Source of the DNA: Prochlorococcus sp. AG-418-C09
Lineage (GTDB): Bacteria > Cyanobacteriota > Cyanobacteriia > PCC-6307 > Cyanobiaceae
Reading direction: 5' to 3'
Length of the DNA stretch: 64,000 bases
NCBI GenBank assembly: GCA_003214355.1
Contig: QCLS01000001.1
Coordinates: 124,001-188,000, forward strand
Below, piece by piece: positions 48,513 to 52,816 of the stretch. The position numbers were made by a program, and so were the translations under genes. Below the pieces are notes generated by a model. The model saw only the letters and a list, made by a program, of their open reading frames with translations. It searched no databases and was not told the origin of the DNA. Position 1 is the first letter of the stretch. Each line of letters starts with the position of its first letter.

Positions 48513-48962
48513 TTATTTGACAAGCCAAACTGGTATTGAGTTCACTTCTCTGCCAGTAAAATTAGCAAACAACAAGAAAAAAACTAAGCTTAAGGAAATA
48601 GTAATTATTAGTAATAGCAAAGAAAACATCTCGCCATTTGAAAAAGGCCTTCTATGTCCAACTTTGTAAGATGATTCTGTATTTTTTTTATCAATTTCAA
48701 GATAATTATTGGAGTCTATTTGATGATTTTCAATATTCTTTAATTTAATATCATGCAAATTTCTAAGATTTGGATTATGTAAATTCTCATAAGCTTCTAA
48801 TACTATTTGCAATTTCAAACTTGCATCATCATGATTAAGAGATGTTGTATCTGGATGAAGTTCTTTTGTCAATTTGCAGAAAGCCTTTCTTAATTCATGA
48901 GAATTAGCTTTTTCATGAACGCCAAGAATCCTATAATAGTTATGTTCAGCTTTCAAAATCAT
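48513..48962 (-). CDS. DnaJ-domain membrane protein, 149 aa
   Basis: Residues about 9-75 form a J-domain: YYRILGVHEKANSHELRKAF and the catalytic HPD in ELHPDTTS. A polar linker is followed by a C-terminal membrane helix (MFSLLLLIITISLSLVFFLLF). It therefore recruits an Hsp70 to a membrane. No zinc or G/F region exists, so it is a type III DnaJ. It may serve the Hsp70-like protein or DnaK. DUF3143 follows in the same transcript; rsmG diverges from it, about 79 nt apart. Confidence 0.85.
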   Translation of the reverse strand: MILKAEHNYYRILGVHEKANSHELRKAFCKLTKELHPDTTSLNHDDASLKLQIVLEAYENLHNPNLRNLHDIKLKNIENHQIDSNNYLEIDKKNTESSYKVGHRRPFSNGEMFSLLLLIITISLSLVFFLLFANFTGREVNSIPVWLVK

Positions 48963-49041
48963 TTCATAATATTCACTATCTTAATCAATTCTATTGAAAT
49001 TGAATCCCTTTATAAAAATAGACACTGAAACCTCTAAGCCA

Positions 49042-49761
49042 ATGGATACAAAAAATATAATTCAAGAATTAAATTCTATTCTTAATCAAGAAGAAATAAA
49101 GATGTTCATGAGATTGCAAGAGATTATTTCTGTATTAAATAAATCCTCCAATTTGACAAGACTAATAAATGGAAAAGATTATTGGGTGTCTCAGATTTAC
49201 GATAGTATTTGGCCATATTTCGAGGACAAAAGTGATGATTTCCATAAAAAAAAATACATAGATATTGGTTCGGGATGTGGCTTCCCTGGATTGGCATATG
49301 CGATAACCCATCCCAATTCTGAGGTTTACTTAGTTGATTCATCTAGAAAAAAAACAGATGCTCTCAAAAAGATTATTAATGAAATGGATCTGAAGAATAC
49401 AATTTATATAATCAATGATCGTATTGAAAACTTAGCGAGGAATGGTCAATATAGGCACAAATTTGATATTGCAACAGCTCGAGCGGTTGCTAAAACACCG
49501 ACCCTGGCAGAATATCTATTACCAATATTAAATAAAGGGGGGATAGGAATTTTATATTGCGGAAAATGGAATATGAAAGAGCAAGAAAAGTTAGATAATT
49601 CTCTAAATATATTAAATGGATCAATAAAAAAAATCGTTTCAAAATTATTACCTGCTAATAAGGGAGAAAGAAACGTTGTCTTTATTCAACCCAATAGTAA
49701 ATGTCCAGATATATATCCTAGAAAGGCAGGTAAACCATCTAAGTACCCACTCGGAAATTAA
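49042..49761 (+). CDS. rsmG: 16S rRNA (guanine-N7) methyltransferase RsmG
   Basis: The 239-aa enzyme methylates G527 of 16S rRNA. It shows SSNLTRLINGKDYWVSQI, the SAM motif YIDIGSGCGFPGLAYAI, and VDSSRKKTDALKK, with FDIATARAVAKTPTLAEY near the end. The ATG at 49042 fits the family start; TTG at 48994 would add 16 residues. It overlaps by 4 nt the end of the convergent reductase gene (TTAA read as stop on both strands). Confidence 0.9.
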   Translation: MDTKNIIQELNSILNQEEIKMFMRLQEIISVLNKSSNLTRLINGKDYWVSQIYDSIWPYFEDKSDDFHKKKYIDIGSGCGFPGLAYAITHPNSEVYLVDSSRKKTDALKKIINEMDLKNTIYIINDRIENLARNGQYRHKFDIATARAVAKTPTLAEYLLPILNKGGIGILYCGKWNMKEQEKLDNSLNILNGSIKKIVSKLLPANKGERNVVFIQPNSKCPDIYPRKAGKPSKYPLGN

Positions 49762-50957
49762 CTTTTTGATTGTCTATTAATAGTTTGACTACCAAAATCT
49801 TCCTTTAAAGATCTCAATTTAATTATTACATTTTCAGGATCTATATGATTCTTTATTGAATCAAGTATTTCCCTTTCAGAAACAGTATTATCTAATTCAT
49901 TAGAATTATTTCCTGGGAACCAATGACTAGCATTGCCCAATAATTGATATCTGGACTTTACAAAACCTTTCATATCCCAAGCTTCTAGTAAATTGGATAG
50001 CCATATTAAAACAGGTATATTGATATTACCAGGGGTACTTTGCCAACCAGGTAAATTCTTGTAGCAGTTGTAATACCAGTTATGTCCTAGAGAATTTAGA
50101 GACTCTTTTTCTAAGTTGTTTGTAATTTGAGGAATATAATCTTTTGCTTCTGATAATAAAGCTACTGCATCAAGATGATGATCAAAATCAGACTCTTTTG
50201 CTACGCCAACGCTAATAGTATGAACATTTTGATTAGCTAAACAAAAAAGATCATTAAATACTATTGGATGGAGCGGTTTGCATAGATTCAGTAACTTTTC
50301 TGAGGGGGAATAGAGATGTCCACCCTTGTCTGTAGGACTAATTATAAAAACCCCCAGATCATATTTCTTTGCTGACTGAATTGCGATCGAATTATTTTGA
50401 TTAATAAAATACCAATGCAAGTTAACATAATCAAATTTATTAGAGCGTATTGCCTTTTGAATAAGAGAAGACTTTCCATGAGTTGAAAACCCTATATTCC
50501 CAATAAGATTATCCCTCTGCCACTTGTTCAAAATATCCACACAACCATTATCTCTAAGTGATTGTTTAAGATGCTCCTCAGTATTAATGCCATGGATGGA
50601 TAACAAATCAATCTTCTTTACTCCTAGCTTTTCAAAACTAGTTTTTAATTCTTCCTCAAAAATCTTTACATCATTGTTAGGAGGTATTTTAGTTTGAATA
50701 ATTTGAAAGGGTGTTTCCATATTTCTTATTGCATTTCCTAACTGCAATTCAGAAGTGCCATAATGTCTTGCAGTCTCTACATGTTGAAATCCATAACCAA
50801 TTGCGGAATTTATTAAGTTATTAAATTTATTTTGTTCCGAAAATGTTATTTCAGTTTCATCTAGTTCTTTCCAACTCTTCTGAAATCTCATTCCTCCCAG
50901 TGAAAGTATAGGTATTTGAATTTCTGTTCTTCCAAATCTTCTTGTGGGAATACTCAT
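49758..50957 (-). CDS. Aldo/keto reductase, 399 aa
   Basis: The N-terminal ~290 residues form the AKR barrel: RFGRTEIQIPILSLGGMRF, the catalytic tyrosine in ARHYGTSELQLGNAI, lysine in IIQTKIP and the histidine-bearing LLSIHGIN. The C-terminal ~100 residues are a helical extension found in a subgroup of microbial AKRs. The gene lies 6 nt after a ferredoxin gene, and a shared operon suggests the ferredoxin may donate electrons. The substrate is unknown. The 3' end interlocks with rsmG. Confidence 0.86.
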   Translation of the reverse strand: MSIPTRRFGRTEIQIPILSLGGMRFQKSWKELDETEITFSEQNKFNNLINSAIGYGFQHVETARHYGTSELQLGNAIRNMETPFQIIQTKIPPNNDVKIFEEELKTSFEKLGVKKIDLLSIHGINTEEHLKQSLRDNGCVDILNKWQRDNLIGNIGFSTHGKSSLIQKAIRSNKFDYVNLHWYFINQNNSIAIQSAKKYDLGVFIISPTDKGGHLYSPSEKLLNLCKPLHPIVFNDLFCLANQNVHTISVGVAKESDFDHHLDAVALLSEAKDYIPQITNNLEKESLNSLGHNWYYNCYKNLPGWQSTPGNINIPVLIWLSNLLEAWDMKGFVKSRYQLLGNASHWFPGNNSNELDNTVSEREILDSIKNHIDPENVIIKLRSLKEDFGSQTINRQSKS

Positions 50958-50963
50958 TATTAA

Positions 50964-51329
50964 TTAATGCTTGGACATTTTTGGTAATTTTCCAAGTGAT
51001 TGAAAACTATCTCTATTTAAACTTCCATCTAGTCTCTCCAGATCTTCAAATTTAGTCCAATGAATGCAATCTACTGGACATGTATCAATAGCCTCCTGAA
51101 TAGTATCAAGAGAGTCCCCATTTTGTCTTACTGCTCTGCTTCTTCCATATTCTTCATCAACAATGAAAGTATTAGATGCAACATGAACACAATATTTACA
51201 GCCTATACAAACCGACTCATCAACCCAAACAGCTTTTTCAGTTAGTTCTCCACCAAGAACTGGTTCAAAACCTGATATTTTATCTTTATCTTCAAATTGA
51301 ATATATGCACTAGAGGGATCAGTATCCAA
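50964..51329 (-). CDS. Ferredoxin with a 4Fe-4S cluster, 121 aa
   Basis: The middle of the 121-aa protein has VCIGCKYCVHVASNTF and later DTCPVDCIHWTKF. These give CxxCxxC-type ligands and a CP motif that make one [4Fe-4S] cluster, and perhaps no second cluster. N- and C-terminal extensions frame it, including a basic tail. The start is TTG at 51329. It is 3 nt after the Ycf35 gene and 6 nt before the reductase, so a single transcript is likely. It is probably an electron carrier for the neighbouring reductase. Confidence 0.83.
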   Translation of the reverse strand: MDTDPSSAYIQFEDKDKISGFEPVLGGELTEKAVWVDESVCIGCKYCVHVASNTFIVDEEYGRSRAVRQNGDSLDTIQEAIDTCPVDCIHWTKFEDLERLDGSLNRDSFQSLGKLPKMSKH

Positions 51330-51332
51330 TTG

Positions 51333-51725
51333 CTAAGATTCCCATTTAGTTAAAACAAGTTCGATAGAGCCATCATTCTCATTTTTTTGTTCAACTATTT
51401 GATAACCATCCTCTTTCGTTTTCGAAATTATTGTGTGATAAGCATACATTTGGGTTACTTTAGATACAAATCTTTCCACAGGTAACTGATATTTCCACAA
51501 ATCCAGATCGGTTACCAGTTCATAAGAATTTGAATGGGAATCCCATTTAAAACCAACTTTTGTATCCTTAGGTAAATCCAGACTTAAATCTACACCAGTT
51601 GACTTACCATTAAAGCCTTTGACATACTTGTTAGTTGTATCAGGATCATAGCCTAAATGATCAAGAGCCTTAATTAATGGCTCAATTTCTCTTAACTGAG
51701 TTTTGATAGTACTAAAATGTGACAT
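51333..51725 (-). CDS. ycf35: DUF1257 / Ycf35-family protein, 130 aa
   Basis: The 130-aa protein fits DUF1257 (plastid Ycf35): SHFSTIKTQLREIEPLIKAL, LGYDPDTTNKYVKGFNGK, DTKVGFKWDSHSNSYELVTD and YAYHTIISKTKEDGYQI. The function of Ycf35 is unknown, although it is conserved in cyanobacteria and algal plastids. Its start overlaps the DUF2997 stop by 14 nt. It is followed by a ferredoxin gene 3 nt later, so it may act in a redox step. Confidence 0.88.
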   Translation of the reverse strand: MSHFSTIKTQLREIEPLIKALDHLGYDPDTTNKYVKGFNGKSTGVDLSLDLPKDTKVGFKWDSHSNSYELVTDLDLWKYQLPVERFVSKVTQMYAYHTIISKTKEDGYQIVEQKNENDGSIELVLTKWES

Positions 51726-51927
51726 TTGATTGATTGTTTAATGGGATTACTTCGTCATTTTGATTAGAGATAAAAGCTTCAGATGTTTTTTTCTTGATTT
51801 TCACTTCACCAAGAGAATCTTCCAAACTTTTAGTCGCCTGATCACATAAAATTCCGTCAAAACCTTCAACGAATTCTTCAACTCGGCCATTTTGATGGAT
51901 TTTAAATCTAAGTGTTCTTTGAGGCAT
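51712..51927 (-). CDS. DUF2997-family protein, 71 aa
   Basis: The N-terminal ~50 residues match DUF2997: RTLRFKIHQNGRVEEFVEGFDG, then CDQATKSLEDSLGEV, which is the usual partner of DUF1257 proteins. A short Asn- and Ser-rich tail follows. The cysteine in the motif is conserved in this family as far as I recall. The gene overlaps the Ycf35 gene by 14 nt and is the first of the four-gene module. Function is unknown. Confidence 0.85.
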   Translation of the reverse strand: MPQRTLRFKIHQNGRVEEFVEGFDGILCDQATKSLEDSLGEVKIKKKTSEAFISNQNDEVIPLNNQSNVTF

Positions 51928-52042: not shown

Positions 52043-52816
52043 CTAATTATAAAAACCTTTCATTCCCATTGAATCTAATGCCGTCTTAGCCTCTTCCATA
52101 ACAGAAGGTTCATTATCAAAAAGAGCTATTTTAGCGCACTCATCAACAAAAGTTTCCTGTAATTGATTATTCAAATCTTGATACAACCTACATAAAGACC
52201 AAATACAATTACTTCTTACAACGGGTTCATTATCTATTCTGAGACTAATAATTAATTGATCTGCGGCTAATTGCGCATTATCTTCAGAGATACTTCCTAT
52301 TTCGGATAAAGAACTTGAGGCCCATAGTCTCACTGAAGCTACATCATTTTTTAATGCATTTATTAAAGGCTTTAAAACTATTTGGTTATCATAGTTAGCC
52401 AAACTCCAGGCCGTTGCCCTTCTAACGTAAGCATTATCATCTGACTCTAATAAATACACCAATTTAGAGACTGCATCAGGACAAGGATTCCTTCCTAAAG
52501 CATATACAGCACTCATTCTTTCTACCGGACATGGTTGCTCTAATAGTGGGAGCAGTAAAGGGAATGATCTTTTGTCTCTATACTCACAAAAAATCCTCAA
52601 TCCTTGAATCCTTTCCTCTCTATTGCCATTTAAATATTTTAAAGCCTTATCGCATTCAGATATAACGTCCAAATCATCATTCGAAAACCCATCTTGATCG
52701 ATCTCTTCAAGTGGATCAATTTCAAGTTCAACTGCTAATTCCTTTGCTAAAACATCTGGATCTATTGTGATATCTGCTAAGCCATCATCTCTTAAATTGT
52801 TATTTTTATTACTCAT
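52043..52816 (-). CDS. HEAT-repeat protein, 257 aa
   Basis: The protein is built of HEAT/PBS-lyase-like repeats from about residue 70: ERMSAVYALGRNPCPDAVSKL, AYVRRATAWSLANYDNQIV, ASVRLWASSSLSEIGS and PVVRSNCIWSLCRLY. It is soluble. Similar cyanobacterial proteins act as phycobilin lyases or scaffolds, but this organism lacks phycobilisomes of the normal type, so a scaffold role is more likely. It is preceded by 115 nt without genes. No enzymatic residues can be named. Confidence 0.8.
   Translation of the reverse strand: MSNKNNNLRDDGLADITIDPDVLAKELAVELEIDPLEEIDQDGFSNDDLDVISECDKALKYLNGNREERIQGLRIFCEYRDKRSFPLLLPLLEQPCPVERMSAVYALGRNPCPDAVSKLVYLLESDDNAYVRRATAWSLANYDNQIVLKPLINALKNDVASVRLWASSSLSEIGSISEDNAQLAADQLIISLRIDNEPVVRSNCIWSLCRLYQDLNNQLQETFVDECAKIALFDNEPSVMEEAKTALDSMGMKGFYN

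What the first reader, a model, noticed from the sequence alone, without database searches (positions are those of the whole stretch)
49758..51927. DUF2997 - Ycf35 - ferredoxin - reductase module
Four co-directional genes with overlaps or gaps of 3-6 nt link two unknown plastid-related families to a 4Fe-4S ferredoxin and an aldo/keto reductase. DUF1257 and DUF2997 have no assigned biochemistry. The gene order suggests an unrecognised electron-transfer or repair reaction and is the best candidate for an undescribed system in the window.
Basis: inference. Interest (0 to 1): 0.58.

Follow-up and report, generated by a model that had tools for sequence, protein, structure and literature searches.

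The report
Ycf35 module and its AAA+ partner
Four linked genes of an ocean cyanobacterium are mostly a known stress operon whose two mystery proteins probably serve a Cdc48-like molecular machine and have also been taken up by marine viruses.

Summary
The four genes are real and correctly placed: DUF2997, Ycf35 (DUF1257), a one-cluster 4Fe-4S ferredoxin and an aldo/keto reductase. Three are already described together: duf2997-ycf35-fed7 is 'cluster g' in a 2014 review, and Fed7 has published stress phenotypes and partners. The window ferredoxin keeps Fed7's five-cysteine spacing. The reductase and a HEAT gene are family-level neighbours (27 and 29 of 29 Cyanobiaceae loci; 0 of 30 other class loci).

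The recurrent partner of DUF1257 is a Ycf46-type, Cdc48-like AAA+ ATPase. In 15 of 15 'type III' operons DUF1257 lies directly downstream of it; copy numbers match in 47 of 57 genomes; a family without psaAB carries AAA, DUF2997 and a divergent DUF1257 together. In three genomes without intact psaAB, intact canonical Ycf35, Fed7 and Ycf46-type genes are all missing, while the reductase stays in the two examined.

I propose that Ycf35 and DUF2997 are accessory subunits of a Ycf46-type AAA+ remodeller, redox-coupled through Fed7. The AAA partnership is moderately supported; the redox gating is inferred.

The parts
51712..51927 (-). DUF2997 protein (71 aa), first gene of the trio; invariant Cys28
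   Evidence: Pfam PF11211 E 3e-13; Cys28 invariant in 23 of 23 and 53 of 53 aligned homologues
51333..51725 (-). Ycf35 / DUF1257 protein (130 aa), overlaps DUF2997 by 14 nt
   Evidence: Pfam PF06868 E 1.8e-29; AlphaFold model mean pLDDT 91.0
50964..51329 (-). Fed7-type single-cluster [4Fe-4S] ferredoxin (121 aa, TTG start); Cys41, 44, 47, 84, 88
   Evidence: Fer4_13 E 1.6e-16; cysteine spacing 3-3-37-4 identical to C53/56/59/96/100 named for Synechocystis Fed7; all five invariant in 13 of 13
49758..50957 (-). Aldo/keto reductase (399 aa) with a C-terminal extension lacking clustered cysteines; linked accessory, probably not core
   Evidence: PF00248 E 2.8e-16; adjacent in 27 of 29 Cyanobiaceae loci and 0 of 30 other class loci with 1.5 kb flanks; near the trio in 1 of 17 AKR-centred loci outside the family
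52043..52816 (-). HEAT-repeat protein (257 aa), 115 nt upstream of DUF2997; family-level neighbour
   Evidence: PF13646 E 6.9e-25; in 29 of 29 Cyanobiaceae loci, 0 of 30 other class loci with 1.5 kb flanks
48994..49761 (+). rsmG, convergent with the AKR (not part of the system)
   Evidence: TIGR00138 over cut-off; conserved order
48513..48962 (-). small DnaJ-domain protein (149 aa) beyond rsmG; possible but untested Fed7 partner
   Evidence: PF00226 E 4.5e-14; found in 69 of 80 named Prochlorococcus-group loci

Best explanation
The window holds the canonical cyanobacterial duf2997-ycf35-fed7 stress operon, extended in the Cyanobiaceae by an AKR and a HEAT gene. Ycf35 (DUF1257) and DUF2997 most likely act as small accessory or adaptor subunits of a Ycf46-type, Cdc48/p97-like AAA+ ATPase (in this genome a single unlinked gene, G000 C7:52563-54014) that remodels a client needed in photosynthetic cells under stress. 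Fed7 supplies the redox input (electrons or thiol state from the FtrC/thioredoxin branch). Shown here: the gene order, the pairing of DUF1257 genes with Ycf46-type AAA genes, joint decay, and the viral pair. Taken from papers: Fed7 partners and phenotypes, the Slr0374/Ycf46 phenotype and its light-responsive cysteine. Inferred: physical complex, client remodelling, redox gating. The AKR is a separable enzyme.
For: (1) Type III AAA loci: in 15 of 15 genomes a DUF1257 gene lies directly downstream on the same strand (gap 42-168 nt), with a homologous small RHH-like gene (called so by eye) upstream; 14 of the 15 were chosen without knowing where DUF1257 lay. (2) Type II: the AAA is within 0.5 kb of DUF1257 in 7 of 10 class loci picked by DUF1257, with DUF2997 in 6, GrpE-like in 6 and Hsp70-like in 5 of the 10. 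(3) In genus g114 the canonical AAA lies about 1.1-1.6 kb upstream of duf2997-ycf35-fed7 in 4 of 4 genomes. (4) Copy numbers of DUF1257 and Ycf46-type AAA are equal in 47 of 57 genomes of the window's class; r 0.78, 0.73 after genome size; 20,000 shuffles reached at most 38. (5) Family f31 (no psaAB in 4 of 4): AAA, DUF2997 and a divergent DUF1257 domain near each other in 4 of 4 loci (profile match 93.4%, E 2.5e-7). (6) Joint decay: G141, G177 and G262 lack intact psaAB, Fed7, intact Ycf46-type AAA and intact canonical ycf35; G137 of the same genus keeps all four. (7) Mirror tree r 0.63, rank 11 of 720. (8) Nearest solved relatives of the AAA are Cdc48/p97. (9) PMC13214033: Slr0374 Cys269 is 91.6% reduced in light, 78.3% in dark; by position this fits the Walker A cysteine kept by 15 of 15 type III AAA.
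Against: No interaction is shown. The canonical AAA is unlinked from ycf35 in 30 of 30 loci outside genus g114 (about 1.5 kb flanks). Type III loci show no DUF2997 in the fetched 8-9 kb. Of 7 Cyanobiaceae paralogue loci picked by DUF1257, only 1 has the AAA close by (L116), one has an AAA fragment (L115) and 5 (L117-L121) none; L111, L113 and L114 of the class set also lack it nearby. Of 12 AAA loci read outside the class, 8 show neither DUF1257 nor DUF2997 nearby. Stand-alone DUF1257 genes in families f32, f35, f36 and f37 have unrelated neighbours where tested. Outside the class 16 genomes have the AAA with no Pfam-level DUF1257, and G090 has DUF1257 without the AAA (sample taken to be G000-G125). 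G295 (90% complete) has psaAB and the AAA but neither Ycf35 nor Fed7, perhaps an assembly gap. No phage record matches the AAA over 80% of its length. Equal copy numbers partly reflect operon linkage and shared ancestry, and only 11 AAA candidates a genome were scored. The true pairing is not the best of the 720. The Slr0374 sequence was not in hand.
Confidence: 0.5

Rival explanations
1. Fed7-centred redox reaction: Ycf35 and DUF2997 help Fed7 deliver electrons to, or repair, a photosynthetic target, and the AKR is a downstream reductase.
For: Fed7 lies with ycf35 in 61 of 61 loci examined; Fed7 interacts with FtrC and DnaJ, and its deletion is sensitive to oxidative, metal, salt and low-iron stress (PMC4284462 passages); DUF2997 has an invariant cysteine.
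Against: DUF2997-Ycf35 pairs without Fed7 in 78 of 80 viral loci and in paralogous operons; the AKR is near the trio in 1 of 17 AKR-centred loci outside the Cyanobiaceae and is kept in G141 and G177, where Ycf35 and Fed7 are lost.
Confidence: 0.2
2. A self-sufficient Ycf35-DUF2997 heterodimer regulates or protects photosynthetic electron flow directly, without an AAA+ engine; phages carry it to keep host photosynthesis running.
For: The phage pair is kept as a unit (the same 15 phage records hold both) and lies next to psbA in P-SSM7; no phage record matches the AAA over 80% of its length; loss together with photosystem genes.
Against: Hosts already supply a Ycf46-type AAA; DUF1257 and DUF2997 occur with the AAA in genomes without psaAB.
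Confidence: 0.18
3. The genes share only stress regulation; their neighbourhood reflects co-regulation and there is no shared mechanism.
For: ycf35, fed7 and ssl1263 are SigD-dependent together in Synechocystis (PMC8875361 passages); HEAT and AKR neighbours change between families.
Against: DUF2997 kept directly upstream of ycf35 in viruses, independent AAA-DUF1257 operons, similar copy numbers.
Confidence: 0.1

Closest known systems
Cluster g (duf2997-ycf35-fed7) and Fed7 (Sll0662) of Synechocystis PCC 6803, PMC4284462
   Same: Gene order, family content, Fed7 cysteine spacing; 12 Prochlorococcus strains are listed there with fed7 in context g'
   Different: The window adds an AKR and a HEAT gene; the text I read does not define g'; no role for ycf35 or duf2997 is given in the parts read
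slr0373-slr0374-slr0376 stress operon (slr0374 = Ycf46), PMC7496141
   Same: Three-gene stress operon with an AAA gene, like the RHH-like/AAA/DUF1257 operons seen in 15 of 15 type III loci
   Different: That slr0376 is a DUF1257 protein is inferred from position, not checked; the canonical Ycf35 operon is a separate locus
Cdc48/p97-type AAA+ ATPases
   Same: Best solved relatives of the partner AAA
   Different: 108-120 bits against a CDC48 NCBIfam cut-off of 802.65; bacterial, with DUF1257/DUF2997 companions
DnaJ-ferredoxin proteins of plants and algae (DJC76/77/82, CDJ3-5), PMC3720927 and PMC4284462
   Same: Fed7-like domain joined to a J domain, consistent with a chaperone link
   Different: No Ycf35 or DUF2997 domain is mentioned in the passages read

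Membership tests
Cluster g / Fed7 operon | Order duf2997-ycf35-fed7 on one strand | tested here: met
Cluster g / Fed7 operon | Five cysteines spaced as in Fed7 (53, 56, 59, 96, 100) | tested here: met
   Window 41, 44, 47, 84, 88: spacing 3-3-37-4 in both
Cluster g / Fed7 operon | Co-transcription as one mRNA | not testable with these tools
   Published for Synechocystis; the consensus promoter scan found no excess over shuffles
Ycf35 / DUF1257 | PF06868 above gathering score | tested here: met
   102.4 bits against 22.2
DUF2997 | PF11211 above gathering score | tested here: met
   49.8 bits against 24.1
Aldo/keto reductase | PF00248 above gathering score | tested here: met
   59.9 bits against 24
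AKR with C-terminal ferredoxin domain (COG1453-like, name recalled) | Clustered Fe-S cysteines in the C-terminal part | tested here: not met
   None in the window protein or the orthologues aligned
Ycf46-type AAA+ partner system | AAA gene linked to DUF1257 at this locus | tested here: not met
   In this genome the AAA is on another contig; near the canonical trio only in genus g114, otherwise linked to paralogous DUF1257
Ycf46-type AAA+ partner system | Physical complex of AAA, DUF1257 and DUF2997 | not testable with these tools
   Only single chains could be predicted here

The most novel reading that the evidence does not exclude
Ycf46-type AAA, DUF1257 and DUF2997 form an ancient protein-remodelling machine that predates photosynthesis in the Cyanobacteriota. 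It has Fe-S companions (a radical-SAM-type protein in a family without psaAB, Fed7 in cyanobacteria) and thiol switches (invariant DUF2997 cysteine; a light-responsive cysteine in Slr0374 that fits Walker A). Oxygenic cyanobacteria and plastids use it as a redox-gated stress machine, and marine cyanophages carry the DUF2997-Ycf35 pair to steer the host's AAA+ engine during infection.
Probability: 0.28. Interest if true: 0.85.

Novelty: new variant of a known kind. Interest (0 to 1): 0.6.

Why it matters
Ycf35 and Ycf46 are plastid-encoded reading frames (of red-lineage plastids) without, to my knowledge, assigned biochemistry. Linking them, with DUF2997, to one AAA+ machine turns two unknowns into one testable complex. 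It also gives Fed7's stress phenotypes and the CO2-use phenotype of Ycf46 a possible common cause. The DUF2997-Ycf35 pair in cyanophages, with 551 viral Ycf35 stretches confirmed in one scan, suggests that this machine is worth controlling during infection.

Tried and rejected
Fold of Ycf35: confident model (pLDDT 91.0) but no Foldseek match to the PDB at E 0.001 or better. The VIA-align list tops at Z 6.8 with AMPK/KA1-type domains, within the range the tool calls a common arrangement, so no fold claim is made. The DUF2997 model was poor (pLDDT 56.1) and was not searched. Sequence profiles of both found nothing significant in the PDB (best E 0.069 and 0.1). A scan of viral contigs with patterns of the window AKR confirmed no relative; a distant PHROG match exists.

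Considered and dropped: the AKR as an Fe-S enzyme fed by the ferredoxin (no clustered C-terminal cysteines; mostly unlinked outside the family). A viral Fed7: one ferredoxin-like hit in 80 viral loci (L281), 93.9% identical to a two-cluster, NdhI-like protein of L144 (the name NdhI is recalled); tblastn with the window ferredoxin found none. Treating the DUF1257 remnants near 760-768 kb of G177 and G262 as canonical ycf35: both match the canonical protein only at 24%, and the G177 one lies by an AAA remnant, so they are read as the paralogue. Only G177:1074373-1074663 (38% identity, 7 in-frame stops) is read as a canonical remnant.

Limits of the print search: in an open-licence library; most hits were seen as listings only. 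In the listings and passages seen, nothing states a Ycf35-Ycf46 partnership or names a phage Ycf35. PMC13131479 says DUF2997 is found in 'some viruses' (passage). PMC5940233 reports ycf34, ycf35, ycf46 and pbsA sharing a habitat-linked retention pattern in red algal plastids (passages). Passages only were also seen of PMC12016546, PMC8875361, PMC8141849, PMC7496141, PMC3720927, PMC8066212 and PMC5082946. Jiang 2015 and Singh and Sherman 2002 were not seen; they are known here only through PMC7496141.
Full report
What is there. On the minus strand of a 1.6 Mb genome (Prochlorococcus-like: the 80 best named loci are Prochlorococcus or uncultured Synechococcaceae; I call its family f1 Cyanobiaceae, a recalled name) lie DUF2997 (51712-51927), ycf35/DUF1257 (51333-51725), a single-cluster 4Fe-4S ferredoxin (50964-51329) and an aldo/keto reductase (49758-50957), all above Pfam cut-offs. 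The junctions are a 14-nt overlap, a 3-nt gap and a 6-nt gap. A HEAT-repeat gene lies 115 nt upstream; rsmG converges from downstream, with a small DnaJ gene beyond it. The promoter and terminator scan found no more than its shuffles.

What is already known. A 2014 review (PMC4284462; passages and two sections read) lists duf2997-ycf35-fed7 as conserved cluster g in most of the cyanobacteria in its table. It marks the Prochlorococcus strains g', which the text I read does not define. It reports a tricistronic fed7 operon in Synechocystis; induction of fed7 by low iron, high light and low inorganic carbon; sensitivity of the fed7 deletion to oxidative, metal, salt and low-iron stress; and two-hybrid contacts with FtrC and the DnaJ-like Sll1384. 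The window ferredoxin has cysteines at 41, 44, 47, 84 and 88. The spacing 3-3-37-4 is that of the Fed7 cysteines 53, 56, 59, 96 and 100 named in the review, and all five are invariant in 13 of 13 aligned homologues. SigD controls ycf35, fed7 and ssl1263 together (PMC8875361 passages). So the trio is known; ycf35 and duf2997 remain without a function.

Core and accessories. DUF2997, ycf35 and ferredoxin are together in 61 of 61 loci (L001-L061, the best-scoring loci of three searches, own locus counted twice). With 1.5 kb flanks, the AKR is adjacent in 27 of 29 Cyanobiaceae loci and 0 of 30 other class loci, the HEAT gene in 29 of 29 and 0 of 30. Of 17 AKR-centred loci outside the family only G036 has the trio near, with one gene between. 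Within genus g114 the AKR is seen in one of four longer loci. AKR orthologues lie elsewhere in most class genomes sampled and lack clustered cysteines in the C-terminal part. The AKR is therefore a local addition.

Viruses carry the pair without the redox partner. tblastn against annotated phages found Ycf35 in 15 records (P-SSM2, P-SSM5, P-SSM7 and marine single-virus contigs, some of them duplicates). A DUF2997 search found the same 15 records. In P-SSM7 the pair is next to psbA. PHROGs hold both as families of unknown function. In IMG/VR one N-terminal pattern gave 565 stretches, 551 confirmed as Ycf35 relatives. Of the best 80 loci, 78 have DUF2997 directly upstream by profile search, overlapping or abutting; of the two misses, L242 begins at the edge of the held DNA and L260 shows none. 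tblastn with window genes finds no Fed7, AKR, HEAT, rsmG or dnaJ in the 80; 69 of 80 hold at least 1 kb downstream of ycf35 and 60 at least 1 kb upstream. 35 of 80 match genes of three reference phage regions. In the tree 12 viral proteins (of more than 80 available) form one clade (SH-aLRT 81) inside Cyanobiaceae Ycf35 (98-99), which suggests one capture from marine picocyanobacteria.

The recurrent partner is a Ycf46-type AAA+ ATPase. Cyanobacterial DUF1257 paralogues fall in separate clades, with many unresolved forks. Type II and hsp70b-type loci carry a Cdc48-like AAA with DUF2997, GrpE-like and Hsp70-like genes and no ferredoxin. Of 10 class loci picked by DUF1257, 7 have the AAA within 0.5 kb; of 7 Cyanobiaceae paralogue loci, 1 does, one has a fragment and 5 do not. 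Type III loci were then found from the AAA side: in 15 of 15 genomes (14 picked blind to DUF1257) the order is small RHH-like gene, AAA, DUF1257 on one strand. This resembles the published stress operon slr0373-slr0374-slr0376, where slr0374 is called Ycf46 and its inactivation is said to lower EcaB activity (PMC7496141 passages). Type III loci have no DUF2997 in the fetched stretch, so that subunit is not obligatory there.

Link to the canonical trio. The third AAA clade is canonical and usually unlinked: 30 of 30 loci L313-L342 show no DUF1257 within about 1.5 kb. In genus g114 it lies about 1.1-1.6 kb upstream of duf2997-ycf35-fed7 in 4 of 4 genomes. The window genome has one DUF1257 and one Ycf46-type AAA. 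Over 57 genomes of the window's class the two counts are equal in 47 (r 0.78; 0.73 after genome size; shuffled mean 25.3, maximum 38 in 20,000). That test ignores phylogeny, operon linkage of types II and III contributes, and one search scored at most 11 AAA candidates a genome. Among the 69 other genomes (the sample taken to be handles G000-G125): 7 with both, 16 AAA only, 1 DUF1257 only (G090), 45 neither. A mirror-tree comparison puts the true pairing at rank 11 of 720 (r 0.63).

Outside photosynthesis. Four f31 genomes have no psaAB. Near their AAA each has a DUF2997 gene (Pfam E 1.7e-10 in the one tested) and a protein with a divergent DUF1257 domain (profile match 93.4%, E 2.5e-7; control 0.4%). 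In three loci that gene lies between the AAA and DUF2997; in the fourth it is about 1.7 kb downstream of the AAA. Three of the four also hold a radical-SAM-type gene beside the AAA (Fer4_12 in the two tested). The other 8 of 12 AAA loci read outside the class show neither DUF. Stand-alone DUF1257 genes in families f32, f35, f36 and f37 have unrelated neighbours where tested; 7 of the 8 non-class genomes with DUF1257 still encode the AAA somewhere.

Natural knock-outs. G141, G177 and G262 share a genus with G137 but have no intact psaAB (absent in G141, fragments with stops in the others). I take them for photosynthesis-losing endosymbionts; that is my inference. Fed7 is absent in 3 of 3. No intact Ycf46-type AAA remains in 3 of 3. 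Canonical ycf35 is a remnant with 7 stops in G177 and not found in G141 or G262. The AKR remains open in G141 and G177, the two examined. Reduction of the whole genome could produce the same pattern. Against it stands G295, 90% complete, with psaAB and the AAA but neither Ycf35 nor Fed7; G321 has Ycf35 and Fed7 but no psaAB match, so gaps in draft assemblies matter.

Redox hints. DUF2997 has a cysteine invariant in 23 of 23, 53 of 53 and 4 of 4 aligned sequences. Slr0374 Cys269 is among 27 peptide entries more reduced in light (91.6 against 78.3%; PMC13214033, section read). The peptide 260-271 with cysteine at its tenth residue fits the Walker A stretch of type III AAA, which has Cys there in 15 of 15; canonical AAA have Thr in 34 of 34 and an invariant Cys just before Walker B (34 of 34). 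The assignment is inference, since the Slr0374 sequence was not in hand. Retention of ycf35 and ycf46 in red algal plastids follows the same habitat pattern (PMC5940233 passages).

Verdict. The interpretation as a new redox system is only partly supported. The better reading is a known stress operon whose two unknown proteins belong with a Ycf46-type AAA+ machine, with Fed7 as the likely redox arm and the AKR as a family-level accessory. The AAA partnership is moderately supported by genome evidence; the complex, its client and the redox gating are unproven.

Noticed in passing
L142-L144, L228-L307: Cyanophages and viral contigs carry a DUF2997-Ycf35 gene pair (551 confirmed Ycf35 stretches in one scan); PHROGs list both as unknown function.
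   Followed up: yes
L145:5001-5408: A Treponema succinifaciens plasmid encodes a DUF1257 protein inside a phage-tail/baseplate-like gene cluster, far from photosynthesis.
   Followed up: no
L362, L367, L368: Genomes of family f31 (no psaAB) have a radical-SAM-type protein next to a Ycf46-type AAA, with DUF2997 nearby.
   Followed up: partly
L107-L111, L115, L116, L146: DUF1257/DUF2997 loci with AAA, Hsp70-like and in part weak GrpE-like proteins, one on a plasmid: possibly a distinct chaperone-type or defence-type island.
   Followed up: partly
window 50964-51329 and alignment A3: Fed7 N-termini outside the Cyanobiaceae carry the motif EPELGG twice (7 of 7 aligned), the window protein one degenerate copy (EPVLGG); it could be a binding motif.
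   Followed up: no
window 48513-48962: A small DnaJ gene sits beyond rsmG near fed7 in Cyanobiaceae; Fed7 is reported to bind a DnaJ-like protein (Sll1384), but whether this is its counterpart is untested.
   Followed up: no
window 49758-50957: The AKR family reads ETA..YG where classical AKRs have Asp-Thr-Ala (recalled), in the window and the aligned orthologues.
   Followed up: no
L343-L357, L313-L342: Type III AAA proteins have Cys in Walker A (GVPGCGKS) in 15 of 15; canonical ones have Thr there in 34 of 34 but an invariant Cys just before Walker B (34 of 34).
   Followed up: partly
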